Shown: positions 14,705 through 49,497 of the stretch, in pieces
Layout: each line of letters opens with the position of its first letter
Numbering within the stretch: the stretch's first letter is position 1
Source: Sordariomycetes sp. S80-01Y
Taxonomy: Eukaryota > Ascomycota > Sordariomycetes
Length of the DNA: 64,000 bases
Direction of reading: 5' to 3'
Assembly (NCBI GenBank): GCA_037042185.1
Contig: JAXQJY010000026.1
Location: 1,798,001 to 1,862,000, forward strand
Position numbers and translations under genes: made by a program
The notes under the pieces: generated by a model
Databases searched by the model: none
The model's input: only the letters and a program-made list of their open reading frames with translations
Told to the model about the DNA's origin: nothing

Positions 14705-14876
14705 TCACCGCGCCCGTCGCCCGCCACGTGCCGTGAGACTCTTCACAACTGTGCAGGTAGAGGCCTCGCTCGAGGATCGCCCTCCGAATGGCACGTCCCG
14801 CGGCTCCCAAATAGTCGCGTGGCGCACCACCGCGTTTCTGACTGTCCTGGCGATCCTACTTCCGTCATACTGCGGC

Positions 14877-14892
14877 CGGTACCAGTGTACCG
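14877..14892. promoter_or_regulatory. Perfect CGG-N10-CCG palindrome, candidate Zn2Cys6 binding site
   Basis: The arms CGGTAC and GTACCG are perfect inverted repeats around a 4-base centre (CAGT), so the CGG triplets face each other over 10 bases. Everted or inverted CGG triplets at fixed spacing are the classic recognition pattern of dimeric fungal Zn2Cys6 factors, and Put3 uses N10. It lies about 550 bp before the NRPS ATG. Its role as an operator of the NRPS is inference, and no matching regulator gene lies in the window. Confidence 0.4.
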
Positions 14893-14990
14893 CATCCACA
14901 CCACACCACCAGCTCGCGCCTCAACCGCGCGCAGGCGTGACAGCGGCACAGCTCAGCCTTACCTCCAGCCCCTGCGCGAGTCGCTCTGCC

Positions 14991-15004
14991 CTCTCTCTCT
15001 CTCT
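14991..15004 (+). repeat. (CT)7 run in the NRPS upstream region
   Basis: Seven CT dinucleotides lie within a pyrimidine-rich tract about 440 bp before the NRPS ATG. CT-rich tracts are common in fungal promoters. A TATA-like sequence (gtataa, 15342-15347) lies about 100 bp before the ATG. Confidence 0.45.
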
Positions 15005-15444
15005 CACACCCCGTGGCCGGATTCAGTCGGATCCCGGTCGTCTCACGCAGCCATGTTACTATGCTGGGCTGGCTAGGCTCCCGGGACCCTGGCTTCCTCA
15101 GCAAGTCACTGAGGAGCTTCCCGCGCCAGACGGATCCACAGCTGATCGAGATTCTTAGATATCTAGCAAATGTACCGGATTTCATGTTGAATGCAGCTGT
15201 TGATCTCACCTTTGACCATTGTCAAGTAACTTCTGGAGCTTCTCGATAGTTCAAGCTCCCAGAACGAGCTCGATTTGCAACTCTCGCCTACTCTTGTTGG
15301 AGTTACGATACCCCGTTTCCTTCGGATACCCGCCACCTGTTGTATAACAGCGATTTGGATGAGCTGCTCGTCTCATACCGATTCCACACGTATCGATATT
15401 CTACAAAACCCCTGCCTCACGATACCGACGAGAACGAGAACAAG

Positions 15445-18400
15445 ATGGAACGACACGCGACGAAGCCCGAGACGCTGCCTCTCACCGGCAGTGCTATTGA
15501 CCCCGTCCAGCAGTCACTCGAATGGAACAGCGAGTTCCCTGAAATTGTCGATGCCACCGTGCATCAGTTAATTGAGCTTCAAGCTGAGAAGCGGCCAAAC
15601 GCCACGGCCATCCGCGCCTGGGACCGCGAGCTCACCTACAGCCAGCTTAATCAAGCTGCCAATAGATTAGCAAACTACCTGGTCAGCCACCACCAGGTCG
15701 GTCTGGAGGAGATCGTGCATGTTTGCTTCGAAAAGACGGTCTGGTACTTTGTGGCCATACTAGCCATCAACAAGGCTGGAGCCGTATGGGCTCCCCTTGA
15801 CCCTTCACACCCCCCTCAGCGCAGCCAGCAGGTCGTCTCACAGACCCAGGCGCGCATCATCCTCACCTCACCCAGCAACGCCGAGCTGTGCTCCAGCCTC
15901 GTCCAGACGGTAGTCGAAGTCACGCCGAGGCTCGATGCGCAGCTATCACGAGATGCCTCAACCAGCGAACTCGGTCCGGACTCTGGCGTCGGCCCACGAA
16001 ACGCAGCATACATCCTCTTCACATCAGGCAGCACCGGCACGCCAAAGGGCTTCGTAATGGAGCACGGCTCCGTGTGCACCTCACAAACCGCCATTGGGCG
16101 ACGACTAGGCCTTCATTCCGACATCCGTATTCTTCAGTTCGCGACATTTGTCTTCGATCTCTCAATTGGTGAAATCATTGGGCCCTTGATCTTTGGTTCC
16201 ACGCTGTGCGTGCCCTCGGACGAGACCCGCATGAACGCTCTGCCACAGTACATCCACGAACAGTCCATTAATTGGGCGTATCTGACGCCCGCCTTTACCC
16301 GAACACTCAACCCAGACGATTTCCCTGGTCTCGAACTGCTGCTGCTGGCCGGCGAAGCAGTTGGCAGGGACGTGCTCGAGACTTGGTTCGGAAAGGTGAG
16401 GTTGATCAACGGCTGGGGACCAGCCGAGACCTGCTGCTTCTCGACTCTGCACGAGTGGAAGTCCGCGGATGAGAGCCCCTTGACAGTGGGAAGCCCGGTC
16501 GGTGGTCTGTGTTGGATTGTTGATCCGGAAGACCCCCAGAAGCTGGCGCCCATTGGGGCGGAGGGAGAAGTAATGATCCAGGGTCCCACGATTATCCGCG
16601 AATACCTCGCAGACAAGGAGAAGACGGCCAAATCGACGGTTCTGTCTCTGCCAGACTGGGCCCCCGAGTCCGACTCCCCATACTACAACCGGTTCTACAA
16701 GTCCGGCGACTTGGCGACGTACAACGAGGATGGTACAATCAAGTTCGCCAGTCGAAAGGATACCCAGGTCAAGATTCGAGGTCTACGCGTGGAGTTGGGA
16801 GAGGTCGAGCACCACGTGCGGGTGATGCTCAAGGGCGTTCGTCAGGTCGTGGTGGATGTGCTGAAGACTGAGACGGGCGCCAACCTGGTGGCCTACTTTT
16901 GCGACAGCGAGGACACCCGGCCAAGCGCTACGATGTACGACGCGACGAATGAGGACAACGAGATTTTCCTTCCTATGGGTGCCGACTTGCAGAAGAAGGT
17001 CACAACCCTGGTGAATGAGCTCAGCGCCGTGCTCCCTCACTACATGCTCCCTACGCTCTTCATCCCCTGCAGATACATGCCTCTTATTACCTCGACAAAG
17101 GTAGACCGCAAGGGCCTCCAGGCCAAGACCGCCGAACTGGACCAGGAAGCCCTCTCCTCCTACGCTCTCCAATCTGGAGACAAATCACCGCCCGAGACGC
17201 CCATGGAATGGCGTCTTCAGAAGATCTGGGCTGAGATCCTCAAGCTGCCGGCTGATTCGATCGGCCGCGACGACAACTTTGTCCGATTCGGCGGTGACTC
17301 GATTGCTGGTATCCGTCTCGTCAACACCGCGCGTGCCGAGGGAATCCTGCTCCAGGTCAAGAAGATATTCGAAGACCCGCGCTTGTCGGGCATGGCTGCC
17401 ACTGCTGTTGAGCTCGACGCCGCGGATGCCGTTGCTGATGGGGAGATAACTCCCTTCAGCCTCATTTCCGAGCCTCTGCGGACATTGGTCTACAGCGAAG
17501 CTGCGCAGCAGTGCGGCCTCGGCAGCGACGCCGTCATTGAAGATGCGTACCCGTGCAGCCCTCTCCAGGAGGGTCTGATGGCGCTGGCGATGAAGAACCC
17601 GGGCTCGTACATTGCCAAGTGGATATACAAGCTGCAGCCCGGGACCGATCCGGCTCGCTTCAAGGCTGCGTGGGAGAAGACGATTGAGGTTTGCACGAAC
17701 TTGCGAACGAGGATTGTCCACTTGCAGGGCTCGACGACGCAGATCGTCATTGAGAATGATTATTCTTGGGAGCCTACGGAGGGCATGAATCTGCAGCAGT
17801 TCGTCAAGTCGACCGAGTCGATTACTATGGGCTACGGCTCGCGCCTCAACCGCCACGCTCTCGTGCAGTCCGAAGGTGCCACATACTTCATCTGGGTCGG
17901 ACACCACACTGTATATGATGGCTGGACCATCAGATTGATGCTTGGAATGATGCAGGATTTCTACGAAGATACCAAGACCGTCAGCCTCGACCCGTACCCC
18001 GGGTTTGTCAAGTACGTTGCCAACCTTGACAACGACGAAATGGCCGACTACTGGAAGAATCAGCTGCAAGGCGCCAACCGAGCTGCCTTCCCACCCAACC
18101 CTCGCCCGTCCGATGAAGCCGACCCCAACGAACTCACCAAGTCGTTTAGCGCTAAGATCCCCTTCCCCGATCTCAAGGATAACTCCGTGACGAAGGCGAC
18201 GGTTCTGCGAGGTGCGTGGGCCATGCTCATCTCGCGCTATTCGGACACCGAAGACGTGACCTTTGGGTCTACGACCTCTGGTCGTCAAGCGCCGGTGAAC
18301 GGTCTCGAGACGATGCCCGGTCCAGTCATCGCCACGGTGCCGGTCCGGATAAGGGTCGACCAGGAGGACTCTGCCCTGAGCTTCTTGTTGAACGTGCAGG

Positions 18401-18813
18401 ATCAAGCTCTGGATATGGTGGCCTACGAGCAGTATGGTCTGCAAAACATTGCAAAGGTGTCTGCAGATGCTCGCGATGCTATTAACTTCAGCAGCTTGCT
18501 GGTTCTTCAGCCGATGAAATACCTGTCAGGAATGGCAGAAGAGCTGGTTCAGCAGAGCGGCGTGGATGGAGAGCCCATCGAGGAGCTACCTGAGGGCTAC
18601 TTTAACTATCCTCTTGTCGCTCAAGCTTATGTCTACGACGACTACATCAACCTTGTGTTCACCTACAAGTCCGATGTCCTGACGGAAACCGCCTTGATCG
18701 CCCTGAGCAGCCAATACGACAACATCGTGCAGCAGCTGCTTGTGGAGCGTGAGGCTCCTCTCAAGTCTATCACCATGGCCGGATCGTTCGACATGGATAA
18801 AGCTATTGAATTC
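15445..18813 (+). other. NRPS module 1: A1-T1-C1 (initiation)
   Basis: Residues 1-1123. A short leader of about 40 residues precedes A1, and there is no condensation domain before it, so a free amino acid is loaded. The carrier serine is S619. The C1 active site is HHTVYDG at 820-826. Pocket residues by alignment to GrsA: D-L-G-Y-L-A-G-C-F-K (group a). Confidence 0.85.
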
Positions 18814-21800
18814 AACCCGGAGGCCCCGCACGCGGTTGATACTTGCGTTCACACCTTGATCGAGAAGCAGGCCGCCCTACGACCCGAGGCCCCTGCCATT
18901 GTTGGCTGGGACCAGGAATTCAACTATGGTGATTTGAACGCCGCGGCGAACCGTCTATCACACTACATCATCAAGAACTTCGGTGTGAAGACCGGTGATC
19001 TTGTCCATGTGTGCTTCGAGAAATCGGCATGGCATTTCGTCGCTATCCTGGCTATTATGAAGGCCGGTGCCGCTTGGGTTCCGTTAGATCCAGGCCACCC
19101 GGCTCAACGACAGGAGCAGGTCGTGAAGCAGACTGGTGCAAAGTTGGCCCTGTCATCGAAGCTACATGGTGTTGTCTGCGAGGGTTTCCTGCCTTCTGTA
19201 TTGGAGGTGACCCCGGATCTCGACCGCAAGCTGGCGGAGCACTACCCTGAGACCAGCAAGCACACCCCTCAGACCGGTGTGTCTCCGTCCGACGCAGCGT
19301 ACGTCCTCTTCACTTCCGGATCCACGGGTACACCCAAGGGTCTGGTTATGGAGCATGGTAGCGTGTGCAGCAGTCAGACTGCCATTGGCAAGAGGCTGCG
19401 AATCACGCCCGAGGTACGCATGCTTCAGTTCGCCGCCTTCGTGTTCGACTTGTCGATTGGTGAGATCTTCGGGCCTCTGATCCATGGTGGTTCGGTCGTT
19501 ATTCCTTCAGATGAGACCCGCATGAATGGAATCAAAGAATTCATCAACGAGAAGAAGGTTACGTGGTCCTATCTCACGCCTTCATTCGCGCGTACCCTGT
19601 CCCCGTCTGACGTGCCGACCCTGGAGCTCCTGTTGTTCGCTGGAGAGGCTGTGCCTCACGATGTGTTCAACAAGTGGTTCAGTTCAGTCCGTCTTATCAA
19701 CGGCTGGGGGCCTGCAGAGACCTGCTGCTTCTCGACCCTCCATGAGTGGCAGAGCGCTGATGAGTCGCCCTTGAACATCGGCAGACCCGTTGGCGCTTAC
19801 TGCTGGATCGTTGATCCCAACGACCCTCAGAAGCTCGCTCCTGTCGGGACTCACGGTGAGGTCATGCTTCAAGGACCAACTCTGCTTCGCGAATACCTTG
19901 CCGACCCCGAGAAGACGAACGCTGCCTCCGTCACATCACTTCCCGAGTGGACACCCCGGCGCCACGAATTCAAGCGCTTCTTCAAGTCCGGCGATCTCTG
20001 TTCTTACAATACCGACGGAACCATCGAGTTTTCCTCCCGAAAGGACACGCAGGTCAAGATTCGCGGTCTACGTGTGGAGCTCGGAGAGGTTGAGCACCAC
20101 ATCAGGGCCAAGCTTCCTGAGGCGAAGCAGGTTGCAGTTGATGTGTTCAGAACGGAGGCTGGTGCCAATCTGGTCACCTACTTCTGCTTCGAAGACGACA
20201 CAAAGACAGCGATTAGCTCCGAGGAACAGGTGTTCTTGCCGCTAGATACTGACCTTCAGACGAAGCTAAGCTCCATGGTCAGTGAGCTTGGCATCAGTCT
20301 GCCTCGCTACATGATTCCGACCTTGTTTATCAACTGCAAGTTCATGCCATTCATCACGTCTACCAAGCTCGATAGGAAGGGTCTTTCTGCTCGCATGAAT
20401 GCCCTCTCAAAGGAGGAACTTGCTCAGTATTCTCTCGTGAACAGCGAAAAGCGCGCCCCCGAAACCGACATGGAGAAGCGAATGCAGGTCATGTGGGCTG
20501 AGAAGCTGAACCTCGAAGTGGAGGGCATTGGCAGGGACGATAGCTTTTTGGCTATTGGCGGCGACTCCATCGCTGCCATCTATCTCGTCACTGCGCTCCG
20601 CGAGGAAGGCTTCTTGCTCACAGTCAAGGATATCTTTGACGACCCTAGATTGCACTCTGTGGCGGCTAAGTGCGAAGTTGCCGACGGTGACGCGCCTGAC
20701 TTTGCGAATGTTACGCCCTTCAGCCTTCTGGAGCCTTCCCTGAGGGACAATGTTGACGAGGCTGCGCGCAAGCAGTGCGGTCTGGCCAGTAACCAGAAGG
20801 TTGAGGACGCGTTCCCCTGCAATGCGCTTCAAGAGGGTCTCATGGCTCTGTCTCTGAAGCAGCCCGGCTCGTACATTGCGAAGTGGGTGTACCGTTTGGG
20901 CGAAAGCACCCAGCCCGAAGAGTTCAAGAAGGCCTGGGAGCAGACCGTCAAGGCGATGCCCAACCTGCGAACTAGGATGATCCAGCTTCACTCCACGACC
21001 GTTCAGGCTGTTGTTACCGACGACATTGGCTGGGACTCCACCGAGGGTTTGGACTTGCCAGGCTATCTTGAAGTGGCGAACGACATGAAGATGACCTTTG
21101 GAGACCGTCTTAGCAGATACGGTCTCGTCGAGGGAGCGGACGGCGTCTACTATTTCGTTTGGGTCGCGCACCACGCCATCTACGATGGCTGGACCATGCG
21201 ACTGATGCTTTCTACGCTCGCCGATCTTTACCAAGGCTTTGAGAGCCTCTCCTTGAAGCCTTACTCCAGCTTCATCAAATACACCTTGTCCATGGATACC
21301 AACGCCGCGAAGAAGTACTGGTCCGAGCAGCTCGATGATGCCAAGAAGGCCAGCTTCCCGCCCACGACAAAGTCTGGCTCTAAGAAGGAGAAGGTCACCC
21401 GTCTCATGCGTACGCGCATCGATTTCCCTTCGGCCACGAGCACTGCCGTGACAAAGGCCACCCTGATTCGTGCCGCCTGGGCTGTCGTGCTCGGCAGGTA
21501 TTGCAACATGGACGACATCACTTTCGGCACCACCGTGTCTGGAAGACAGGCACCCGTCCCTGACATTGGAGAAATGCCGGGTCCTATGGTAGCCACTGTC
21601 CCCGTGCGCGTGCGTCTGGACCGCAAACAGACCGTTTCTGAGTTCTTGAAGAAGATCCAAAGCCAGGCATCGGAGATGATTACTTACGAACAATTCGGCA
21701 TGCAACAAATTTCCAAGTTGAACCCCGATGCCGCCGATGCATGTGACTTCAGCAGTCTGCTGGTCATTCAACCTTTCCAGCAAATGGCTGCCGTTGGCGC

Positions 21801-24800
21801 CCACGCCGATGCTGTGCTCGAGATGGACGCGTCTGCCAAGCACGGAACCGAGGACACTCTAGAGGGCTATTTCAGCTATCCTTTGGTTGTCCAGGGTGAA
21901 GTGTCTGACAGCCATGTTGATCTCGTGCTCACATACGATTCGGAGATTCTCCAGGAGGCACAGATGGCGAGGATGAGCCAGCAATTCGAGAATGTCGTAA
22001 AATCCTTGGCTCCGGCCGATGAGAAGGCCCTTGGAGATGTCTCAGTGGCTTCGCCTCGTGATCTTGCCACGGCTAAGGAGTACAACAGCGACCAGCCTGA
22101 AATCGTCGACTCGACCCTCCACGAGCGCATTGCTTACCAGGCTGAGGTTCGTCCGGACGCCCCTGCTATCTGCGCCTGGGACAAGACACTGTCTTACAAA
22201 GAGTTCAATGAGGCCGGTAACCGTCTTGCCCATCACCTCGTTGGCTTTGGGGTTAAGGCTGGCGACCTCGTACACGTGTGCTTCGAGAAGTCAGCTTGGC
22301 ACTTTGTGTCCATTCTGGCCATCATGAAGGCTGGCGCCGCTTGGGTGCCCCTCGATCCCGGACATCCAGCTCAGCGTCAGCAGCAGGTTGTCAAGCAGAC
22401 CGGCGCAACCCTTGCCCTTGCTAGCCCCGTCAATGTTGCCCTTTGTGAGGGTCTCCTCGAGAAGGTCCTTGAAGTGACCTCAGACCTTGACGAAAAGCTT
22501 GCTTCTGACCCAGCCCTCAGCCTTCGTGCACCCGAGACCGAGGTCACTTACAAGAACGCCGCGTATGTGCTCTTCACATCGGGTAGTACTGGTACCCCTA
22601 AGGGTTTGGTGATGGAGCACGGTTCTGTTTGCACCTCATCTCGCCATATCGGCCAGAGACTTGGTCTGTCTCCCGATGTGCGCATGTTGCAATTTGCGGC
22701 ATTCGTCTTTGATTTGTCTATTGGCGAAATTTTCGGTCCCTTGACCCACGGAGGAAGCTTGCACATCCCATCCGATACCGATCGCATGAACGATCTGCCT
22801 GGCTTTATCCGTAAGAACCAGGTTAACTGGGCTTACCTTACGCCAGCCTTCGCCCGCACCCTAAACCCGAAGGACCTACCCTCCCTGGAGCTTCTCCTGT
22901 TCGCTGGTGAAGCTGTGGGCCGTGACGTCTTTGAGCAATGGGTTGGAAAGGTTAGGCTTATCAATGGATGGGGACCTGCTGAGACCTGTTGTTTCTCTAC
23001 GCTTCACGAGTGGACTAGCATTGACGAGAGTCCCTTGTGCATTGGAAAGCCCGTGGGCGGCTTCTGTTGGGTCGTGGACCCGGAAGACCCTCAGAAGCTA
23101 GCACCGATTGGAACCAGCGGCGAGGTCGTCATCCAGGGACCAACACTCCTCCGGGAGTACCTGGCCGACCCCGAGAAGACAAAGGCTGCCATCGTGCCGA
23201 ATCTCCCTGAATGGGCCCCGAAGCCCGATGCCTCTCATTGGGGAAGGTTCTACAAGTCTGGCGATCTGTGCGCTTGGAATGCCGACGGAACCCTTGAATT
23301 TGCGTCTCGCAAGGATACGCAGGTCAAGATTCGCGGATTGCGCGTTGAACTTGGCGAGGTCGAATACCACGTGCGTAGCTCTTTGAAGGGGGTGAAGCAG
23401 ACAGTCGTCGATGTGTTCAAGACCGAAGCCGGCGCGACGCTCGTGGCTTATTTCAGCTACAGCGAAGAACAGCGTCAAGCTGGCGCGGCCAACGACGTCT
23501 TTGCCCCCCTTACCCAGGAGATTCAGAACCAGGTCACCGAGATGGTCGGGCAGCTTACTGTGTCGCTCCCTCGTTATATGATTCCGACCATCTTCATCCC
23601 TTGCTCTTACATGCCAGTCATCACGTCGACCAAGCTGGACCGTAACAAGCTGAAAGCATTCACCGCCAACTTGACCGATGCCCAATTGGCCAAATACTCC
23701 CTCGAAGATGCTGAGAAGCGTGCGCCGGAGACCCCCATGGAGATGCGCCTTGCTGAGCTTTGGGCTCCCATTTTGAAGAAGCAAATCTCGGCCATTGGAC
23801 GAGATGATAACTTCTTGCGCATCGGCGGTGACTCGATCGCTGCTATGCAGCTTGTGTCGCAGGCTCGCGAGGTTGGCATTGGATTGACCGTCAAGGATAT
23901 CTTTGATGACCCTCGTCTTTCTGGCGTTGCTCTCAAGGCTCAAGAGATTGACGAGGAAGTCGATGGCGGAATCAAGCCTTTCAGCCTGCTTAGCGAGACC
24001 CAGCGCCGGGCTGTTACCACCAAGGCTGTCAAGGACCAGTGTGCTTTGGCGCCTGGTCAGGAGATCGAAGATGCCTACCCCTGCACTGCCCTGCAGTCTG
24101 GCCTGATGGCTTTAACGATGCAGACCCCCAGCGCTTACATGATCAAGCATATCTACAAGCTGCATGAGCTCGTGGAGGCCGATAAGTTCAAGGCTGCTTG
24201 GGAGAAGACCATCAAGACCTGCGATAACCTCCGCACTCGCATCGTCGAAGTGAACGGCTCTGCCATGCAGGTCGTTCTGAACGATGATGTTGCTTGGGAG
24301 GATACCAAGGGTATGGGTATCGACGAGTACATGACATCTACCAAGGAGCTCACGGTCAATTATGGGTCACGCCTGTGCTATTTTGCTCTCGTCCAGGAAG
24401 GTGATGAAATGTGGTTTGTTCAAACCTTCCACCACAGCATCTTCGATGGTTGGACCCGTGGGTTGCTTCTTGAAGCATTGCAAGCTCACTACCTCGAGGA
24501 GGTTCTGCCTCCGTTAATGCCGTACTCTGGGTTCATCAAGCATGTTACCGATATTGACAACAACGCCGCTGCAGACTACTGGAAGACTCAGCTCGCTGAT
24601 TCGAAGGCTGCTGCATTCCCTGCTTTCAACAACAGCGAGAACATCACCCGCAGCTACACCCGCAAGGTCGAGCTGCCCGAAGACATTAATACTTCCATTA
24701 CTCGTGCCTCGGTAGTGCGTGCTGCTTGGGCTATTGTCTTGGCTCGGTATGGTGAGACCGACGACATTACATTCGGTGCAACTGTTTCTGGTCGCAATGC

Positions 24801-36800: not shown

Positions 36801-39800
36801 CTTGCAGATCGGCGGTGACTCTATGGCTGCTATCCAGCTTGTATCTGCCGCTCAGAAGAGCGGTCATGGGCTGTCAGTAGCCAATATTTTCAGCAACCCT
36901 CGTCTCTCCGCCATGGCTACTGTCGTAGGCAAGATCGAGCAGCCTTACAACAATGTCCCCTTCAGCTTGATGAAAACAGACAAGGACGCAGCACTTAAGG
37001 AGGCTGCCAAACATTGCGGATCCGAGACAATGGTCTTCGAAGACGCCTACCCTTGCACTTCGCTGCAAGAAGGCTTGATGGCCTTGGCCGTTAAGACACC
37101 AGGCTCCTACACTGCTAAAATGTCTTTCCGTCTAGGTAATAATGTCAACGTTCGCCGCTTCAAGAGCGCATGGGAGGAAACTGTCCGACAGTGCACCAAT
37201 CTCCGCACCCGCATTGTTCCAGTTGAAGGAGAGACAATCCAGGTTGTTGTCAAGGACGATATTGAATGGGAAGAAAACCACCAAGACCACAACATGCGTT
37301 CCTTTACCCAGGCCGTCCACGACACCCCGATGGCCTACGGGTCCCGCCTCTGCCGTTACGGCCTCTGGACCGAGGGCGACGATACTCACTTTATCTGGGC
37401 GGTGCACCACGCCATTTATGACGGTTGGACGATGACTCTGATTCTCCGTACGCTTTACAGCGCGTATCAGGGCACCCAGGTGACCCCTCTGCAGCCATAT
37501 GCCGGATTTATCAAGTACAACCAAGATATGGTTGAGTCTGAGGCTCAGGAATACTGGAGAAGGCAGCTCTCCGGGGCGAACCGCGCCAGTTTCCCTCCGA
37601 CGATGCGCACTCAACGCTCCGAGTCTGGCAGTGTGACCCGATCTCTCACACAGAAGATTGACTTCCCCAAGCCTTCCGAGACCTCGATTACCAAGGCTAC
37701 AATTGTTCGGGGTGCCTGGGCTATGATTCTGGCCAGGTACTGCGACACCAACGATGTGACCTTTGGTACGACAATCTCCGGAAGACAGGCTCCTGTCCCT
37801 GGTCTAGGTGACATGCCTGGCCCTGCAATCGCGACTGTCCCTGTTCGGGTGCAGCTCGACCCTAGTCAGAGCATTGCAGACTACCTTCAAGGCGTTCAAA
37901 CCCAGGCTTCAGATATGGTTGCCTTTGAGCAATATGGTCTGCAAAAGATCTCTAAGCTAACAAACGAGACGCAAGAAGCTTGCAACTTCACTAGTCTCCT
38001 AGTCATCCAGCCCTTCTCTCCTCTTGCTGCCATGAACAGCGACGGGGAGGCTGTACTCGAGCCCAGCGGAGACGCCGGCCCCGACGACGAGAAGATGGAA
38101 GGCTACTTTAACTACCCTCTCGTCATCCAGGCTTCCGTCTCTGATACCGAGGTCAGCCTTCACATGACCTACGATACATCTATCCTCGCCGAGTCTCAGG
38201 TCCGCGGCCTCTGCCACCATTTCAACCAGGCAATTGAGGACTTGCTACCGCAGCGCTCTGAGCCACTGAACGCGGTGAGCATTGCCGGCCAGTGGGATCT
38301 TGATGAAGCTATCCGTCTCAACGGCGATGGACCTGAGCTCATTGACAGGTGCTGGCACCACATCTTCGAGGAAAACGCCAAGAACCAACCCGATGCCCCA
38401 GCTGTTATGGCATGGGACCGCAAGCTCACATACAAGGAGCTCGACCAAGCTGCCAACCGCCTTGCCCACCACCTTGTTACCTCGTATGGTGTTGTCAACG
38501 ACGAATTGATTCACGTATGCTTCGAGAAATCGGTTTGGTACTTTGTTTCAATTTTGGCCATTAATAAGGCCGGTGCCACGTGGGTTCCTCTTGATCCAGC
38601 CCACCCTGAGCAACGTTTGCAGGCCGTCACCAAGCAGACAGGTGCTCGTCTTGGGCTGGCTTCATCCAAGCAGACCTCCTTGTGTAACAGTCTCCTTGAA
38701 ACAATTGTTGAGGTGAACAGCGAGCTTGACGATAAGCTGAACCAGGAAGCTCCTCAGGCTTCAGACATCCGTCCCGTGGAGAACATCTCCTCTCGTACCG
38801 CTGCTTACATTCTCTTTACAAGTGGTAGCACGGGCACACCTAAGGGCTTCATCATCGAACACAGGGCTCTCTGCACTTCTCAAATCAACATGTGGAGGAG
38901 ACTTCGGATGACGCCTGATGTGAGGATGCTACAATTTGCCTCCTACGTCTTCGACATGTCCGTTGGTGAAACCATTCCCTCATTCCTGTTTGGCGCTTGT
39001 GTCTGCGTGCCTTCGGAAGATACGAGAATGAACGGTTTGGTGGACTTCATCAACGAGCACAAGGTCAACTGGCTCTTCATGACCCCCGCATTTGCACGTA
39101 CCTTACGACCTGCCGACCTACCAACCGTTGAGTTCATGATCCTGGCTGGGGAGGCTGTCGGTCAAGACATCCTCGATACTTGGTACGGCAAGATTCGTCT
39201 AGTTAACGGATGGGGTCCAGCTGAGACTACTGTTTGCTCTACAATCCACGAATATGCGTCTGCAAATGACAGCCCAGGAACAATCGGAAAGAGTGTTGGC
39301 GGCTACACTTGGATCGTCGACCCTGACGATGCCCATCGTCTGGCCCCTATCGGCACCATTGGCGAGGTCATGATCCAGGGCCCTACCCTTCTTCGCGAAT
39401 ACCTTGCCGACCCTGGCAAGACGGCCGCTGCTGTTATGACCGACCTGCCCTCCTGGGCGCCCAAGACCTCCGAGCCAGGGTTCGATCGCTTTTACAAGTC
39501 TGGTGATCTGGCTTATTATAACCCCGACGGCACGATGGAGTTCTCGTCTCGCAAGGACACACAGATCAAGATTCGCGGACTTCGTGTGGAGTTAGGGGAG
39601 GTTGAGCACCATATTCTCAAGGCCCTGACTGGCGTGGTGCAAGTGGCTGTAGATGTATTCAAGACTGAAGCAGCCACCCACCTCGTGGCCTACTTCTGCT
39701 ACAGCGACGACCCGAGTCAAGCTGACATGGTGGATGACCTCTTCATGCCCCTTACTGCGGACATGCAGAGCCAGATCACTGAGATGGTGGGCGAAATCTC

Positions 39801-42800
39801 AATTGCCTTGCCCTCTTACATGGTGCCTACCCTATTCGTCCCCTGCAACTACATGCCTTTCATCACCTCGACGAAGCTGGATCGCAAGAAGCTCAAGGCA
39901 GAAACCGCTGCCTTGAGACAGGAAGAGCTGATGGAATACAGTCTTGTGGATGCCGATAAGAGACCCCCCGAGACTGAGATGGAAGAGCGCATCCAGAAGC
40001 TATGGGCCGGTATCCTGAACCGTCCATTGAACAGCATCGGTCGCGACGACAGTTTCTTGAAGATTGGTGGCGACTCGATCTCTGCCATTTACCTCGTCAC
40101 GGCTGCCCGTGAGGCTGGTATCCTATTGACCGTCAAGACCATCTTTGACGATCCTCGTCTCTCAGCCATTGCCTCAAAGGCTATAGATACGGACCCGGTT
40201 AACGATACCGACGAGGAGATCATGCCGTTCAGTCTCCTGAATGAGCAACTCCACGAAGCCGTCCTCAACAAAGCCGTTCGTGAGCAATGTGATTTGGGTA
40301 AAGACCAGGTCATCGAGAACGCGCTTCCTTGCACGCCGCTCCAGGAAGGTTTGATGGCCCTGGCTGTTAAGCAGCCTGGTTCATACATTGCCAAGTGGGT
40401 GTATAAGCTTCCTGATCACGTTGACCCGTCCAGGCTCCAATCTGCGTGGGAGGCTACCGTGAAGAAGTGCACCAATCTTCGTACCCGCATTGTTCACATC
40501 TTGGGCTCTGCGATTCAAGCTTACATCAAGGACGATGTCCACTGGGAAGATACCGAGGGCAAGGATTTGAAGACCTTCCTCAATGAGGCTTCTGCTGTTG
40601 AGATGGAGTTTGGATCTCGTCTTGCTCGCTATGCCTTGATCAAGAATGGCCCCGACGATTACTACTTCGTCTTTATCGCGCATCATGCCGTTTATGACGG
40701 ATGGTCCATGCGACTGATTCTCGGCATATTCGCTGATTCATATCATGGATCGAACAGCCTTTCACTCAAGCCCTTCGACAAGTTTATGAAGTACATCGTC
40801 GATATTGACGACAAGGCTGCAGCACAATTCTGGAAGAACCAGCTTCAGGACGCCAAGCGAGCCTCATTCCCGCCCATGTCCACAACGAGGACTCAATCCG
40901 AGACTCGAAACATGAACACACTCTTCCAGCTCCCTCCCACCATCGACTCGTCAGTCACCAAGGCGACCGTGGTTCGCGCCGCCTGGGCTATGGTCCTAGC
41001 GCGGTACTGCGATGCCAATGATGTCTGCTTTGGAAGCACCGTGAGCGGACGACAAGCGCCAGTTCAAGGCCTGGGAGAGATGCCAGGTCCCGTTGTCGCG
41101 ACGGTCCCTATCCGCATCACCATTGACAAGGATCAGTCCGTGACGGACTTCTTGCACGGCATTCAGTCGCAAGCCTCTGAGATGATTCCCTTCGAACAAT
41201 TCGGTGTGCAGAACATCTCCAAGCTGAGTCCCGAAATGCTTGAGGCACTGAACTTCAGTTCGCTACTGGTCGTGCAGCCCTTCCAGAAGATGTCTGCCAT
41301 TGGTGCCGACGCCGACCAGCTCTTGATCCCCGCCGAGTCTACTGATGAGCAGACTGACTCAAAGCTCGAGGGATACTTTTCCTTCCCTCTTGTCTTGCAA
41401 GGAATGGTTTCGGACGAAGAGGTGTCCATCAACCTGACCTATGACTCGCAGGTCTTGTCCAAGCGACAGATGGTCGCCTTGACAAACCAGATGGAGCATG
41501 TCATCAAGGAGCTTCTGACCCAGGTTGACACCCCTGTTGGTGATATCTCCATTGCAGGCGAATGGGATCTTGGCGAGGCCTCCAAGGCCAATGATGAAGT
41601 CCCTGAGATCCTTGATGTCTGCTTCCACGACATGGTGTCGAAGCAGGCCGAGATTCGCCCCGACGCCCTCGCTATCCAGGCCTGGGACGCGGAGCTCAGC
41701 TACGCCGAGTTTGAAAGAGCTTCGAACCGCCTAGCGCATCATCTCAAGGATGACTTTAACGTCAAGGAGGGCGATCTCGTCCAAGTCGTCTTTGAGAAAT
41801 CTGCCTGGCACTTCGTCGCTTGTCTCGCAATCAACAAGGTTGGCGCAGCCTGGGTACCCCTCGATCCCGGCCATCCCCGTCAACGCCAAGAACAAGTCGT
41901 TAAGCAGACCGGTTCGACTCTTGCGTTGGCTTCGCCACAGCACGCGGAGCATTGCAAGAGTTTGGTCGCCAACGTCATTGAGGTCACCCCCGAGCTTGAT
42001 GCCCACCTTGCCAATGATGAGAGCAAGTCCGTCAACGGCCCAGCCGTTCAAGTTTCTCCCCGCAGCGCTGCCTATGTCCTGTTCACGTCTGGCAGTACCG
42101 GCACCCCGAAGGGTCTCGTCATGGAGCACGGAAGCGTGTGTACCTCGCAGACAGCAATCGGAAAGCGCCTCAAGATGACACCAGAGGTCAAGATGTTGCA
42201 GTTCGCCGCCTTCGTATTCGATCTTTCCATTGGAGAAATCGTGTGCCCGTTGATCCATGGCGCGACGCTGTGCATCCCGTCAGACGAGCAGCGGATGAAC
42301 AGCCTGGCCCAATTCATCGCCGACAAGAGCGTTAACTGGGCCTTCTTGACTCCTGCCTTTGCAAGGACTTTGCGCCCAGAGGATGTGCCATCCTTAGAAT
42401 TGCTCCTCTTCGCTGGTGAGGCTGTTGGAAAGGATGTGTTCCAGCAATGGTTCGGCAAACTACGACTTATCAATGGCTGGGGCCCTGCAGAGACTTGCTG
42501 TTTCTCAACGCTCCACGAATGGGCCTCCTCCGATGAGTCTTCTCTTACAGTTGGACGTCCTGTGGGTGGTTTCTGCTGGATCGTCAACCCGGATGACCCA
42601 ACACGTCTGGCACCCATCGGCACAGCCGGTGAGGTGGTTATCCAAGGTCCAACTCTACTGCGCGAATACCTCTCAGATCCCGAGAAGACCAAGGCCGCAA
42701 TCGTTCCAGAAGGCTCTCTGCCTAACTGGGCGCCAATGTCTGACGACTCTCACTGGTCTCGTTTCTACAAATCGGGTGACTTGTGTAGCTACAACCCTGA

Positions 42801-45800
42801 CGGCACGATCGAATTCGCAAGCCGCAAGGACACTCAAGTCAAGATTAGGGGCCTCCGCGTGGAGCTTGGCGAGGTCGAATATCATATTCGCAACTGCTTG
42901 CCAGGTGTCGAGCAGGTGGCCGTGGACGTCTTCAAGACCGATTCCGGTGCCAGCCTCGCGGCCTACTTCTCTTACAGCAAGAAGACTGGTCAGACGGGCA
43001 CTGTCGATGACGTGTTCGCAGCTTTCACTCCCGAGACGCAGGCTCAAGTCACGGCAATGGTTGGTGAGCTAACCGTAGCACTGCCGCGCTATATGGTGCC
43101 TACGTACTTTGTGCCCTGCAACTACATGCCGGTCATCACCTCCACGAAGCTAGATCGCAACAAGCTCAAGGCCCTGACAGCTGAGCTCAACGAAGAGCAG
43201 CTGTCCATGTATTCTCTTGATGACGCTGAGAAACGTGCGCCAGAGACCCCGATGGAACAGCGTTTGGCTCAAATCTGGGCCAAGCTCCTTGGTAAGCCAG
43301 TCGACACTATCAGCCGCGACGATAACTTCCTTCGCGTGGGTGGTGACTCGATTGCCGCTATGCAGCTTGTTACACAGGCACGCGAGGCAGGCATCACTGT
43401 CACCGTCAAGGACATCTTTGACGACCCCCGCCTCAGCAGCATGGCTCGCAACGCCAGTGAGGTCGGCGAGAGTGGCAACCCGGGCCAGCCGAAGCCATTC
43501 ACTCTGTTGACCCCTGAACAAAGGGAAGCTGTATCTACGAAAGCCACTCGCGATCAGTGTGGCTTGACAAAGGATCACGTTATTGTGGATGCATACCCGA
43601 CAACGACTATCCAATCTGGCTTAATGTCACTCACAATCAAGCAACCCGGGGCATACGTCATTAAGCACGTTTACAGGCTATCCAGTGAGATTGATATCGC
43701 ACGATTCAGGGAAGCCTGGGAGCAGACAGTCAAGGTGTGTGACAATCTTCGCACGAGGATCGTCGACCTCAACGGCTCGGTCGTCCAAGTTGTCATTAAA
43801 GATGACGTCGCTTGGGAGGAGGCAGCTGGACGAATGAACATGGCTCAATTTATGGGTTACACCAAAGATATCAAGCTGGACTACGGCTCTCGTCTCGCCC
43901 GCTATGCCGTCGTCAAAGACGACGACGGTCAGCACTACTTCGTCCAGATCTTCCACCACAGCATCTTCGACGGATGGACCCGGGGACTGCTGCTTGAGAC
44001 TCTTCACAGTAACTACGTGGAGGCGACACCGCCGTCCATGCAGCCCTACTCGAGCTTTATCAAGTATGTGACCGAGATGGATACTGATGCGGCCACCGAT
44101 TTCTGGCGCGAGCAACTTGAGGACGCCAAACCAGCATCCTTCCCTGCGCCTCTCGGCCCTGAAGCCACTGCCAAGAAGAGTGCGCCTGGGCACGTAAGCA
44201 AACACATCGAATTCGGTGCCTCTGTCAACAAGACCATCACGAAGGCGTCTATTCTTCGTGCCGCGTGGTCCCTCGCTCTCGCTAGGTACGGTGAGACGGA
44301 CGACGTGACCTACGGTGCAACCGTATCTGGCCGTAACGCACCTGTGCCTGGGCTCGAATCAATGCCAGGCCCTGCCATCGCCACGGTGCCTGTCCGCGTC
44401 AAGATCAACCCAGAACAGACAATTTCGGACTTCCTGCAATCGATTCAGTCGCAAGCCATGACCATGACTTCCTATGAGCAGTTCGGCCTCCAGAACATCA
44501 GCCAGCTAAGCCAAGAGGCCAAGGAAGCTTGCGATTTCACTAGTTTGATCACTGTTCAGCCTGGTCAGAGCAGCCACTCCAATAGCACTGCTTCTGACGA
44601 GGCTGAGCTGCTCACGTTCGATGGCGACAAGATCGGCGATTCTATGGACAGCTACTTCAACTACCCGCTTGTAGTCGAGGCGGCTCTGCTGGACACCCAC
44701 GTTGAGCTTGCTTTGACGTATAACAGTAACGTCCTCAGCGAGAACACAATGACTGCTCTTGCGAACCATTTCGATCACTTGGTCCAACAGCTGCTATTGT
44801 CTTCTGACAAGACCATTGGCCAGCTTTCAATGGCCGGTCCTTGGGATCTTGAGAAGATCAGACACTGGAATGACTATGTACCCGAGGTCTCCAACTCCAC
44901 AATCCCTGATCTTATTACTCTTGAGGCTCAGAAGGCCCCCAACCACGAGGCGCTATATTCTAGCGACTTATCGTTCACCTACAGTGAGCTTGATGCCCTT
45001 TCGACGCAATTGGCCGACCATCTCGCTCAACTTGGTGTGCGACCCGAGACCTTCGTGCCCTTCTGCATGGAAAAGTCTCCTTGGGCCGTCATCGCCATGG
45101 TCGGCATCATGAAGGCGGGTGGTGCTTTTATTCCTCTTGACCCCAGCCATCCTGAGAGCCGTCGCCAGGGTCTCATCAACCAAGTCGGTGCTCAACACCT
45201 GGTCTGCTCACCGACAACAGCAGCCTCATGTGCCGGAATGACCCCCAACAACATCGAGCTCTCTGCCGCTCTCCTCAAGGGTCAGACCAGCACAAGCCAG
45301 AAAAGATTCAGCCCTGCCCCAAGCAACGCCGCCTACGTACTGTTTACGTCGGGTAGCACCGGTACCCCCAAGGGCGTGCTGGTTGGCCATCGTGGCATCT
45401 GCAGTAGTTTGACCGGTCAGCGCAAAATGTTTGGCTTCAACGGTGACTACCGCCCGCGCTTCCTGAACTTTGCCAACTACGTCTTTGATGGAAGCATCTT
45501 CGAGATTTTCGCGACCCTAACCGCGGGCGGCACCGTGTGTGTGCCCAACGACGAGCAGCGTATGCAACAGACCGCCGCCTTCATGGAGGAGGCCCGTGTC
45601 GACTGCGCTATCTTGGCACCGTCCTTTGCACGAACTGTTGACCCCGATTCCGTGCCAACTCTGCGCAAGTTGATGACTGCTGGAGAGGCCCCAGGAAAAG
45701 ACATCATGGACGCCTGGCTCGGCCGAGTAACACTCATCAACGGTTATGGACCCTCTGAAACCTGCATCTGCTGTGCAGCTCATGAGTTCACCTCGCCCGA

Positions 45801-48161
45801 CACGCCCGCCGCAACCATTGGTCGTGGTGTGTCGCACGTCAACTGGATCGTCGAGCCTAACGACCACAACAAGCTCACGCCGGTGGGACAAATCGGTGAA
45901 CTTCTGGTGCAAGGTCACGCCATGGCCCGTGGCTACGTCAACGACCCTGAGAAGACGGCGAATGCATTCATCACGAATGTTGACTGGATGCCTGCCGATC
46001 TGGTGGACAGGATGCCACAGACATTCTACAAAACTGGTGATATGGTGAGGTATAGACCTGATGGAACATTGGAGTTCTTTGGGCGACAGGATGGACAGGT
46101 TAAGGTTCGTGGACAGCGTATGGAGTTGGGTGAGGTGGAGGATAGGATCAAGAATGCTTCAGACGCGGTGGAGCACGTGGCCGGCATGGTTGTCCGACAC
46201 AAGAACCGCCAAACCCTCATCGCCGTCGTCACACTGAAGAACGCCAAGGCGGACGAGAGCAACAACTCTCTCTTCCATACAATGGATGATGATATGAGGA
46301 AGCTTCTGTCGCATCTGATTGAGGAGCTCAAGAACGCGCTTCCAGCTTACATGGTCCCAACCATGTTGCTGCCCATCAAGGAGATGCCCTTCTTCGGTGC
46401 ATCGTACAAGCTCGACCGCAAGACGCTCAAGCAGACTTGCGATGCACTGACTCAAGATGAGCTGGCCGCGTTCGTCACGGCCAGTCATATCAAGACCCCT
46501 CCAACCACTGAGGAGGAGTTCAAACTCCGCGAGGTGTTTGCGTTCTGCTTGGAGATGAGCGTCGAAGAGATTGGCAAACATGACCAATTCTTGCAGATTG
46601 GTGGTGATTCCATTACGGCCATCCAGCTTGCCAACATGGCCCAGAAGAAGGGCATCAACATTACAGTCGGCCAGGTCTTCCGCGACTCCCGACTGTCAAG
46701 CCTTGCTTTGGCCGGCTCTGATGGCACTGCGGGTTACGAGTCATTCCCAACCGAGCCTTTTGAGTATCTTCCTGATGGTGAGAATGATGCGATTCTCGAC
46801 GAGGTCCGCGAAAAGTGCAACTTCCCCGCGGACCAAGTCATCGAAGACGTCTTCCCCGCCACAACCGTCCAGGAGGCTTTCATGGCTGGGTCCGCGAAAT
46901 TGCCCGGAACTCTCATGGCTAAGCGCCTCTACAGACTTCCGCCTGATATTAACATCGAGGCCTTCAAGTATGCTTGGGAGCGAGTGTTTGAGCACTTCCC
47001 CAACATGCGCACTCGCTACATCCTGCACGAAGGCATGTGCATTCAGGCTATCGTGAAGGAGAAGATGGTATGGGAAGATACCACTGGCTACAGCGTTCGT
47101 TCCTGGATGGAGCACTGCGCTGAGAATATCCGCATGACCTATGGGTCGCGCCTGAGCCAACATGCCCTGCTTGAGGAGGATGGCGAGTACTTCTTCGCTT
47201 GGATTCGTAAGTCCACCCACATTCCATCTTTTTTTTTTAATCTCGCTGACGCCAAACAATAGACGGACATGCTATTCTTGATGGATGGGCCATGGCTATG
47301 GTCATGGATTCACTTCACACAGCTTACGCCGACGCGAATGCGGAGCTGCGCAAGCTCAAATCAATGGCGTCCTTCGTCAAGTACTACGAGAGCCTCGACC
47401 ACGAAGAGATGGCGAACTACTGGAGCAAATACCTTGCAGGTGCAAAGCGTGTGCACTTCCCTCCCGAGCGCACGCCTGGGACTCGTCTGCGCCATGCCCT
47501 TCGTCACTCGTCCAAGATCTTCCACTTCCCCGAGCTCACCGACAACACCATCACCATTGCTTCAGTAATGAACACTGCCTGGGCCGCGACGCTTTCCCAC
47601 TTCGGGAAAGAAAGCGACATCACTTTCATGACCACGTCTTCCGGTCGTCTTGCTCCGCTCGAGGGACTGGACCGCATCCCCGGCTGTCTGACGGCTCGTG
47701 TTCCAGTCCGCGTCAAATTCGATCCCAACCAAAAGGTCCTGGATCTTCTTCACACAACCCAGATGAACTCCGCTGAATGCGTCGATTATGAGCAATACGG
47801 TGCCCAAAATATCGCCAAGCTCGGCAAGGATATCGAGCACGCGATCACCGACCTACCGGGTATCTTCTCCCTTCAGCCCTGGCAGCAGCGTCAATCAGTC
47901 GAAGAGCTCAGCTCTGAGGTCGCACTGGTCACTCCAGCATATGATAAGTACTCGGCAGCCGAGTCCTCCGATGGGTTCTTTAGCCAGGTCCTCATCACCC
48001 AGTGTTTCATGGGCGAGGATGAGACCGATCTGCAGACCTACTGGAACTCTGACGTCTTGACAGAGACGCAGGCGGACGCTGTCAACGACTACCTTGCTAA
48101 GGTTGCCTGCAACCTCGCTCAGCACATGGATAAGACCGTTGGTGAAGTCTTGTCCATGTAG
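15445..48161 (+). CDS. Ten-module non-ribosomal peptide synthetase, (A-T-C)x10
   Basis: The gene has two exons (15445-47206 and 47263-48161) and encodes 10,886 residues. The start is the first in-frame ATG (context aagATGg), 35 codons after the frame opens. The domain order is A-T-C repeated ten times. Every A domain has the ATP motif FTSGSTG, a GxGPxE motif, a (Y/H)K(S/T)GDL motif and the catalytic Lys in TSTKLDRK or its variants. Every carrier domain has a GGDS serine (S619, 1708, 2797, 3868, 4952, 6044, 7126, 8211, 9302, 10389). Nine C domains have HHxxxDG and the tenth has GHxxxDG. There is no starter C, E, methyltransferase, TE or reductase, and modules of about 1,076-1,123 residues leave no room for them. 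The expected product is a decapeptide assembled in the cytoplasm, released and probably cyclised by the last C domain. No frame break is seen. I do not match it to a named synthetase. Confidence 0.97.
18814..22083 (+). other. NRPS module 2: A2-T2-C2
   Basis: Residues 1124-2213. The carrier serine is S1708 and C2 has HHAIYDG at 1909-1915. The A2 pocket residues equal those of module 1 (D-L-G-Y-L-A-G-C-F-K, group a). Confidence 0.85.
22084..25311 (+). other. NRPS module 3: A3-T3-C3
   Basis: Residues 2214-3289. The carrier serine is S2797. The A3 pocket is group a (D-L-G-Y-L-A-G-C-F-K). C3 has HHSIFDGWTRG at 2996-3006, a sub-type shared only with C9; both precede group-b A domains. A3 also shares VEYH at the A8 region with A9, where the other group-a domains have VEHH. 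Confidence 0.85.
25312..28551 (+). other. NRPS module 4: A4-T4-C4
   Basis: Residues 3290-4369. The carrier serine is S3868 in HDQFLQIGGDS, a form shared with module 10. C4 has HHAQFDG at 4067-4073. The A4 pocket reads D-A-C-L-M-G-G-I-M-K (group b). The catalytic Lys lies in GASMKLDRK, not TSTKLDRK, again as in module 10. Confidence 0.83.
28552..31812 (+). other. NRPS module 5: A5-T5-C5
   Basis: Residues 4370-5456. The carrier serine is S4952 and C5 has HHAVYDG at 5150-5156. The A5 pocket reads D-M-G-F-I-A-G-V-C-K (group c), the same as A8. The two A domains also share the unusual stretch FASYVFDMS. Confidence 0.85.
31813..35079 (+). other. NRPS module 6: A6-T6-C6
   Basis: Residues 5457-6545. 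The carrier serine is S6044. The A6 pocket is group a (D-L-G-Y-L-A-G-C-F-K). C6 has HHAVSDGFSLV at 6244-6254, where the other internal C domains have an aromatic residue before Asp and Trp after Gly. It precedes the outlier A7. Confidence 0.83.
35080..38319 (+). other. NRPS module 7: A7-T7-C7
   Basis: Residues 6546-7625. The carrier serine is S7126 and C7 has HHAIYDG at 7321-7327. The A7 pocket reads D-V-S-M-M-V-A-I-F-K (group d), unlike any other module. The core motifs also differ: SGSTGKPKA, KLRGYRIELGEIE and a Lys in NTSLKMDRK. Confidence 0.83.
38320..41589 (+). other. NRPS module 8: A8-T8-C8
   Basis: Residues 7626-8715. The carrier serine is S8211 and C8 has HHAVYDG at 8413-8419. The A8 pocket equals that of module 5 (D-M-G-F-I-A-G-V-C-K, group c). 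Confidence 0.85.
41590..44868 (+). other. NRPS module 9: A9-T9-C9
   Basis: Residues 8716-9808. The carrier serine is S9302. The A9 pocket is D-L-G-F-L-A-G-C-F-K, one Tyr-to-Phe change from group a. C9 has HHSIFDGWTRG at 9504-9514, as in C3. Confidence 0.85.
44869..48158 (+). other. NRPS module 10: A10-T10-C10 (terminal)
   Basis: Residues 9809-10886. The carrier serine is S10389. The A10 pocket reads D-G-F-I-M-A-G-I-C-K, nearest to module 4. C10 reads H-G-H-A-I-L-D-G at 10588-10595 after splicing, so the first His of HHxxxDG is Gly while the catalytic second His (H10590) and Asp remain. Fungal cyclising terminal C domains often have SHxxxDx at this place, so a release or macrocyclisation role is likely. 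Confidence 0.83.
47207..47262 (+). other. Sole intron of the NRPS gene
   Basis: A 56-nt intron with a GTAAGT donor, a T-rich tract, a GCTGAC branch site and an AATAG acceptor. It interrupts the codon for H10588, inside the active-site motif of the last condensation domain. Without its removal the reading frame stops at 47262 before the motif. Confidence 0.93.
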
Positions 48162-48538: not shown

Positions 48539-49497
48539 ATGGCCGCCACCACACCCATAGCCCAGGGTAGCCCTGCCCACCTCCTACCTCCGAGTTGGAA
48601 GACGTCAGTCACAGCCTGGCTCGCCGAAGACACGCCATCGTTCGACTACGGTGGCTTTGTTGTGGGTGAAGGGGAGCGAACAGCTACGCTCTGGGGAAAG
48701 TCAGCTGGTGTTATTGCCGGCCGACCATTCTTCGATGAGGTGTTTACGCAATGCGGCTGCACTGTTGAGTGGTACGCAGACGAGGGATCAGAGCTTGACC
48801 TGAGCGCGAATGGGGGCAAGATGAAGGTCGCAACCGTACGAGGACCCGTGAGAGGGATCCTTCTAGGTGAGCGTGTCGCTCTGAACACCCTAGCCAGGTG
48901 CTCAGGCATCGCTAGCCGTAGCCGCGAGCTCGTCACATTACTTCGCGAGGCCGGATACAAAGGCATCCTAGCCGGCACTCGCAAGACGACACCCGGCTTC
49001 AGACTTGTCGAAAAATACGGCATGCTGACTGGTGGAGCTGATGCCCACCGAATGGATCTGAGCACCATGGTCATGCTGAAGGATAACCACGTCTGGAGCC
49101 GAGGCAGTATCACGGATGCTGTTCGTGCCGCCAAGTCAGTGGCTGGCTTCAGTGTAAAGATCGAAGTGGAAGTTCAAAGCGAAGAGGAGGCTGACGAAGC
49201 GATTGCGGCGGGAGCTGACGTTGTCATGCTGGATAACTTCACTGGTGACGGCGTGAAGATTGCGGCAAGGAGCCTGAAGGATAAGTGGGCGGGCAAGGCT
49301 CACTTCCTCTTGGAGGTTTCCGGCGGTCTGAAATCCGACAATGTCACCCCATATGTGTGCAATGGTAAGTCACGGTAGAGACACTGTTTGCGAAGCGCTT
49401 TTTGGCTAACGTGAAAGCAGATATTGACATCATCTCGACAAGCTCCATCCACCAAGGCGTGCCGCATGTCGACTTCTCCCTCAAAATTGAGCACTGA
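48539..49497 (+). CDS. BNA6: Nicotinate-nucleotide pyrophosphorylase (quinolinate phosphoribosyltransferase)
   Basis: Two exons (48539-49364, 49421-49497) give 300 residues; the 56-nt intron has a GTAAGT donor and AAGCAG acceptor. The enzyme joins quinolinate and PRPP to give nicotinate mononucleotide and CO2 in de novo NAD synthesis from tryptophan. The NadC signature is complete: RNTLAR-like segment [17 protein letters not shown] (about 119-135), [36 protein letters not shown] and the C-terminal SGG and STSS segments. The length is normal. The gene ends 183 bp from the convergent Ca2+-ATPase. It is a standard single-copy metabolic gene, and nothing in it shows a link to the NRPS. Confidence 0.95.

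What the first reader, a model, noticed from the sequence alone, without database searches (positions are those of the whole stretch)
15445..48161. A giant ten-module NRPS made only of A-T-C units, with no match I can name
Seen: ten A, ten T and ten C domains with intact core residues in one 10,886-residue chain, and no starter C, epimerase, methyltransferase or thioesterase. Known: fungal NRPSs ending in a C domain usually cyclise the chain. Inferred: the product is an unmodified, mainly L-configured cyclic (or linear) decapeptide. Decapeptide synthetases this uniform are rare, since most large fungal ones (peptaibol, cyclosporin types) include E, MT or PKS parts.
Basis: partly seen in the sequence, partly recalled or inferred. 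Interest (0 to 1): 0.9.

Follow-up and report, generated by a model that had tools for sequence, protein, structure and literature searches.

The report
Fungal ten-module peptide-making giant enzyme
This fungal gene encodes one intact giant enzyme with ten repeated units that should join ten amino acids into a small peptide, possibly rich in a rare building block typical of peptaibol antibiotics but started and released differently from peptaibols, so it is a good lead for a new compound rather than a new kind of machine.

Summary
Window 15445-48161 encodes one 10,886-residue NRPS: a 31,762-nt exon, a 56-bp intron (47207-47262) and a short last exon. Motifs and alignment show ten A, ten T and ten C domains in strict A-T-C order. 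I found no starter C, KS/AT/ACP, E, MT, TE or R domain. Synonymous sites between modules are near saturation while the protein is conserved, so the modules are old and under selection.

The five a-type domains share the pocket DLG[Y/F]LAGCFK, which I recall as the Aib code of peptaibol synthetases (recall; no call confirms it). The two c-type domains share DMGFIAGVCK; the three b-type pockets differ.

Best reading: a synthetase of an Aib-rich decapeptide with a free N-terminus, released by the divergent last C domain (GHxxxDG), most simply as a ring. 'Mainly L' becomes doubtful, because Aib is achiral. No cluster partner was recognised nearby, and no fungal collection was searchable, so novelty against MIBiG or fungal genomes is untested. 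I file it as a new member of the fungal (A-T-C)n NRPS kind.

The parts
15445..48161 (+). NRPS gene, 10,886 aa, (A-T-C)x10
47207..47262 (+). single 56-bp intron, inside the last C domain just before GHAILDG
   Evidence: GT...TAG boundaries restore the C3 motif region
15445..18804 (+). module 1 (A1-T1-C1); pocket DLGYLAGCFK (a type)
18805..22068 (+). module 2; pocket DLGYLAGCFK (a type)
22069..25275 (+). module 3; pocket DLGYLAGCFK (a type); A3/A9, T3/T9, C3/C9 pair in the trees
25276..28539 (+). module 4; pocket DACLMGGIMK (b type)
28540..31794 (+). module 5; pocket DMGFIAGVCK (c type)
31795..35055 (+). module 6; pocket DLGYLAGCFK (a type)
35056..38310 (+). module 7; pocket DVSMMVAIFK (b type, diverged)
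38311..41577 (+). module 8; pocket DMGFIAGVCK (c type)
41578..44838 (+). module 9; pocket DLGFLAGCFK (a type)
44839..48158 (+). module 10 (holds the intron); pocket DGFIMAGICK (b type)
46738..48158 (+). terminal C domain C10 (holds the intron), GHAILDG in place of HHxxxDG, 31-36% identical to C1-C9

Best explanation
A working fungal NRPS that loads its first amino acid directly on A1-T1 (free N-terminus), adds nine more in line order, and releases a decapeptide through its terminal C domain, most simply by attack of the free N-terminal amine on the thioester (head-to-tail ring). Five positions (1, 2, 3, 6, 9) take the same small residue, most likely alpha-aminoisobutyric acid; positions 5 and 8 take one other residue (isovaline, valine or alanine class); positions 4, 7 and 10 take three different residues. 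The gene grew by tandem duplication of a three-module unit a-b-c. Shown: architecture, intact motifs, pocket letters, grouping of modules, selection. Inferred: substrates, order of use, duplication history, release mode, ring.
For: Ten ordered modules with intact motifs. No upstream C, KS, AT or ACP: in the best seven rows of the solved-structure search the A-domain match begins at residue 23-34 of the chain, and none of the 30 upstream flank ORFs given to Pfam (of 55 listed; the other 25 overlap scanned ones) matched such a domain. Pocket letters: A1, A2, A3 and A6 identical in 10 of 10, A9 in 9 of 10, although only 43% of alignment columns are invariant among the five; A5 and A8 10 of 10 at 59% of columns; A4 and A10 only 5 of 10 at 55% of columns. 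Trees: A4/A7/A10, T4/T7/T10 and C3/C9 are starred groups; A3/A9, T3/T9 and A5/A8 pair with lower support. C10 alone has lost the first His and is the longest branch. Terminal C domains as release or cyclisation domains of fungal NRPSs are described in passages of PMC2823734, PMC6518819, PMC10212144 and PMC12113358; the CT of PMC6518819 has SHxxxDG with the second His kept.
Against: The Aib assignment rests on my recall of peptaibol-synthetase codes; two text searches for code fragments found no paper on it. PMC12192607 says that signature comparison and A-domain phylogeny are limited predictors for peptaibol synthases (passage). By sequence the second-exon part of C10 matches bacitracin, tyrocidine and surfactin C domains better than TqaA (57.8, 51.5 and 50.6 against 40.7 bits). 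A changed first His is not proof of a terminal role: in PMC6518819 C1, C7 and C8 also have it, and PMC10212144 describes a fungal LCL-A type with SHxxxD. The duplication model is not fully borne out: A3/A9 (91/94), A5/A8 (93/91) and T3/T9 (91/92) are below the tool's star threshold, T5/T8 and C5/C8 do not pair, and C1/C7 (85/90), which the model does not predict, does. No Aib-forming or tailoring gene was recognised nearby.
Confidence: 0.5

Rival explanations
1. Same assembly line, same Aib-like building blocks, but the product is linear: C10 passes the chain to an external amine or water, or to a second NRPS protein that starts with A-T in trans, as in split peptaibiotic systems.
For: Split systems exist: coniotin uses three NRPS proteins for 21 modules (PMC11774467, passages) and the NPT2 gene is split in two (PMC11610996, passages). 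Peptaibols are linear. C10 is not closest to TqaA by sequence.
Against: No second NRPS was recognised in the other 31 kb of the window (58 of 113 listed flank ORFs scanned, the other 55 overlap scanned ones). The changed C3 motif of C10 alone fits a terminal rather than an elongating role, though not uniquely.
Confidence: 0.25
2. The five like A domains activate an ordinary small amino acid (alanine or valine class) and the product is an ordinary cyclic peptide with no link to peptaibiotics.
For: The Aib code is recalled, not confirmed; prediction in fungal NRPSs is unsatisfactory (PMC10212144 passage; PMC12192607 passage). No Aib-forming enzyme was recognised in the window.
Against: Five domains share a tight pocket, DLG[Y/F]LAGCFK, that I recall from Aib modules; two further modules share a variant of it.
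Confidence: 0.2
3. An orthologue of a peptaibiotic synthetase already sequenced, such as the ten-module TOPH_03035 of Tolypocladium ophioglossoides.
For: TOPH_03035 has ten modules, and its modules 2, 3 and 6 share ancestry (PMC4517408 passages).
Against: Its domain order, start and release domains were not seen; its 18-gene cluster holds transporters, an epimerase, an esterase, a PKS and a 16-module NRPS, of which only an esterase-like alpha/beta hydrolase was recognised here.
Confidence: 0.1
4. A decayed or non-functional relic of a larger synthetase.
For: No cluster genes were recognised beside it; C10 has a changed motif.
Against: 10,886 codons open, motifs intact, fourfold sites near chance while residues are kept.
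Confidence: 0.03

Closest known systems
Peptaibol synthetases (Tex1 of Trichoderma virens and kin)
   Same: Very long single chains with duplicated modules (PMC2823734 passages); by recalled codes the a-type pockets are of the Aib kind.
   Different: Tex1 begins with KS-AT-ACP and ends with a reductase (PMC11610996 passages); this one begins with A and ends with C.
LcsA, leucinostatin synthetase of Purpureocillium lilacinum
   Same: Ten modules, 11,872 aa, A4, A7 and A8 for Aib (PMC4946873 passages).
   Different: C-A-PCP order with a first C that takes an acyl chain, reductase release, PKS partners; here A-T-C order, terminal C, no PKS recognised.
TOPH_03035 of Tolypocladium ophioglossoides
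   Same: Ten modules, peptaibiotic A-domain clades, related modules 2, 3, 6 (PMC4517408 passages).
   Different: Sequence and domain order not available here; lies in an 18-gene cluster with a PKS and a 16-module NRPS.
Fungal (A-T-C)n peptide synthetases, e.g. SAPIO_CDS10511 (A-T-C x4) of Scedosporium apiospermum
   Same: Pure A-T-C modules with terminal C and no editing domain (PMC6737921 passages).
   Different: Four modules against ten; its A domains are related to SimA, destruxin and enniatin types.
Arborcandins A-F
   Same: One 2017 review counts seven fungal cyclic decapeptides, six of them arborcandins (PMC6150023 passages).
   Different: Another review calls them cyclic lipopentapeptides with alkyl side chains (PMC9230156 passages); no gene was seen. 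No link to this gene is claimed.

Membership tests
Fungal multimodular NRPS of (A-T-C)n type | Repeated A, T, C domains with core motifs in one chain | tested here: met
   10 A, 10 T, 10 C by motif and alignment; Pfam 10, 9, 10 with T5 cut by my piece boundary
Fungal multimodular NRPS of (A-T-C)n type | Chain ends in a C domain instead of TE or R | tested here: met
   C10 46738-48158 is followed by the stop codon
CT-type cyclising synthetase | Terminal C with changed C3 motif, second His and Asp kept | tested here: met
   GHAILDG; the published CT seen has S in the first place, here G; the change is not exclusive to CT domains
CT-type cyclising synthetase | Sequence closest to known terminal C domains | tested here: inconclusive
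   TqaA 40.7 bits, bacitracin synthase 57.8 bits, exon-2 part only; for C1 the same two give 45.5 and 109; no CT reference set held
CT-type cyclising synthetase | Cyclic product | not testable with these tools
   needs chemistry
Peptaibol synthetase | N-terminal KS-AT-ACP loading | tested here: not met
   chain starts at A1; no KS/AT/ACP match in the chain or in the 58 of 113 flank ORFs scanned
Peptaibol synthetase | C-terminal reductase | tested here: not met
   no Pfam reductase-type match; chain ends in C
Peptaibol synthetase | A domains for Aib | tested here: inconclusive
   five of ten pockets DLG[Y/F]LAGCFK; meaning of the code is recalled
Peptaibol synthetase | A domains inside the peptaibol clades | not testable with these tools
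   no fungal reference A domains found in held collections

The most novel reading that the evidence does not exclude
The first synthetase of a head-to-tail cyclic peptaibiotic: a decapeptide with Aib at positions 1, 2, 3, 6 and 9 and a second dialkyl residue at 5 and 8, built from a duplicated Aib-X-Iva trimodule and closed by a terminal C domain, with neither the acyl start nor the alcohol end that define peptaibols. ('First' is a conjecture; only open-licence papers were searched.)
Probability: 0.25. Interest if true: 0.7.

Novelty: new member of a known kind. Interest (0 to 1): 0.45.

Why it matters
If the Aib reading is right, the gene makes three things testable: whether Aib-rich chains can be closed into rings by a terminal C domain, what a peptaibiotic does without its acyl cap and alcohol end, and how a three-module unit multiplies into a long synthetase. 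Cyclic, protease-resistant Aib peptides would also be useful scaffolds. If the Aib reading is wrong it is still an unusually long, uniform synthetase with an unassigned product.

Tried and rejected
Rejected: hidden E domains (TIGR01720 far below cut-off in 9 C domains, T followed directly by C); dual epimerising C domains (motif absent); recent gene conversion between modules (fourfold identity 0.24-0.40 over 21 a/c-type A pairs, mean 0.31, chance 0.30; the highest, A2/A6 at 0.40, is above chance; T3/T9 is 0.5 of only 18 sites; no 40-codon window above 85% nucleotide identity in the 21 a/c-type A pairs, nor above 75% in the 36 pairs of C1-C9); foreign gene by composition (GC3 0.66, within 0.53-0.83 of eight neighbouring ORF stretches from seven genes); a PKS, reductase or second NRPS in the flanks (58 of the 113 flank ORFs of 90 aa or more were given to Pfam; the 55 not given each overlap a scanned one).

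Led nowhere: own-genome search (no genome held); relatives of A domains in viral contigs (none) and in bacterial genomes (six loci, 27-31% identity); C3 against plasmids (289 records, all under 60% identity, the five listed at 25-28%); text searches for pocket codes; arborcandins as product (reviews disagree on ring size, no gene). Searches for a published ten-module A-T-C-only or cyclic Aib synthetase (30 of 68, 11 of 11, 15 of 31, 15 of 25, 4 of 5 and 15 of 31 papers listed) showed none by title or start of abstract. I opened passages of 15 papers and no whole text; subscription journals are largely missing; the paper cap stopped me before the KK-1 paper (PMC10512319; start of abstract only). 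So absence in print is not claimed.

Full report
What is there. The frame from ATG 15445 runs open to a 56-bp intron at 47207-47262 and ends with the stop at 48159-48161, giving 10,886 residues. The first exon is 31,762 nt long. Ten A, ten T and ten C domains follow each other, with 1071-1092 residues between successive T-domain serine motifs. Pfam finds 10 AMP-binding, 10 Condensation and 9 PP-binding stretches over the pieces given; the tenth PP-binding (T5) was cut by my own piece boundary and is intact by motif and alignment. The chain starts with A1 (matches to solved A domains begin at residue 23-34 in the best seven rows) and ends with C10. No KS, AT, MT, TE or R match was found. TIGR01720, the E-domain companion (its meaning is recalled), gave at most 21.2 bits against a cut-off of 74.2 in nine C domains.

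It is a selected, old gene. Over the 21 pairs among the seven a- and c-type A domains, 56-71% of residues match, yet the third base of fourfold codons agrees at 0.31 on average (0.24-0.40), close to the 0.30 expected from base use. Synonymous change is near saturation while protein sequence is kept. GC3 (0.66) lies inside the range of eight neighbouring ORF stretches, 0.53-0.83.

The modules are ordered. The A domains fall into three types: a (modules 1, 2, 3, 6, 9), b (4, 7, 10; A7 is only 45-46% identical to the other two) and c (5, 8). A4/A7/A10, T4/T7/T10 and C3/C9 are starred groups; A3/A9, T3/T9 and A5/A8 pair with lower support; T5/T8 and C5/C8 do not pair, and C1/C7 pairs weakly, which a simple block model does not predict. 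The order is a-a-(a-b-c)-(a-b-c)-(a-b). Block 3-4 matches block 9-10 domain by domain: A3/A9 71%, T3/T9 69%, C3/C9 55% (next best 46%), A4/A10 59% (next best 46%), T4/T10 60% (T4/T7 58%), but C4/C10 only 32%. I infer that a block was copied up to but not including the last C, and that C10 is a separate terminal domain; that the gene grew from a three-module unit is an inference from this pattern, made after seeing it.

Substrates. Reading the ten pocket positions from the A4-A5 motifs (GrsA numbering recalled) gives DLGYLAGCFK for A1, A2, A3 and A6, DLGFLAGCFK for A9, DMGFIAGVCK for A5 and A8, DACLMGGIMK for A4, DVSMMVAIFK for A7 and DGFIMAGICK for A10. Nine of ten pocket positions are invariant over the five a-type domains against 43% of all columns; the c pair agrees in 10 of 10 against 59% of columns; A4/A10 agree in 5 of 10 against 55%. 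So a and c positions seem to keep one substrate each while b positions have diversified. I recall DLG[Y/F]LAGCFK as the Aib code of peptaibol synthetases. No call confirms this: full-text searches for code fragments found nothing relevant, and two papers warn that codes predict fungal or peptaibol substrates poorly (PMC12192607; PMC10212144; passages seen).

Release. C1-C9 carry HHxxxDG; C10 carries GHAILDG and is the most divergent C domain. Fungal NRPSs commonly release by a terminal C domain (PMC2823734 passage), and a described terminal domain has SHxxxDG with the second His kept (PMC6518819 passage). Against a simple CT reading, three non-terminal C domains of that same enzyme also have the changed first residue, a fungal LCL-A type does too (PMC10212144), and the second-exon part of C10 scores better with bacitracin, tyrocidine and surfactin C domains than with TqaA. 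With a free N-terminus and no other release domain, ring closure is the simplest outcome, but linear release or hand-over in trans is not excluded.

Comparison. Peptaibol synthetases load through KS-AT-ACP and end with a reductase (PMC11610996 passages); both features were tested and not met, so this is not a peptaibol synthetase, though it may use the same building blocks. LcsA has ten modules with Aib at three, but in C-A-PCP order with acyl start and reductase (PMC4946873 passages). Pure A-T-C enzymes ending in C are known with fewer modules (PMC6737921 passages). TOPH_03035 has ten modules with related modules 2, 3 and 6 (PMC4517408 passages); its domain order was not seen and it is the first thing to compare.

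Surroundings. Neighbours look like general genes: DUF4238, acid phosphatase, CRAL-TRIO protein, TesB-like thioesterase, alpha/beta hydrolase (about 10.2-11.1 kb), quinolinate phosphoribosyltransferase with its ATG 378 bp after the NRPS stop, a P-type ATPase, a sugar transporter and an SNF2 gene. 58 of 113 listed flank ORFs were scanned and the other 55 overlap them. No Aib-forming enzyme, ABC transporter or regulator was recognised among them. The organism is not identified; that it is a filamentous fungus is inferred from gene structure and content.

Limits. No fungal genome or MIBiG search was possible. A-domain queries in bacterial and viral collections gave nothing closer than 31% identity, and C3 against plasmids nothing at 60% or more. 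Novelty of the sequence is therefore untested.

Noticed in passing
window about 10240-11122 (+): An alpha/beta hydrolase (hormone-sensitive-lipase like, GDSAG motif, apparent introns) is the nearest recognisable gene upstream of the NRPS; an esterase lies in the described Tolypocladium peptaibiotic clusters, so it could belong.
   Followed up: partly
window 8190-9158 (+): TesB-like acyl-CoA thioesterase upstream; the leucinostatin cluster holds a thioesterase, but here no acyl-accepting C domain exists.
   Followed up: partly
window 11150-15440: About 4 kb before the NRPS start without a recognisable gene: 15 of 15 ORFs of 90 aa or more gave no Pfam match.
   Followed up: partly
window 48539-49497 (+): Quinolinate phosphoribosyltransferase (NadC type) begins 378 bp after the NRPS stop, in the same direction, with one apparent intron read by eye.
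   Followed up: no
window 34174-34203 (C6): C6 reads HHAVSDGFSL where the other nine C domains have W after DG.
   Followed up: no
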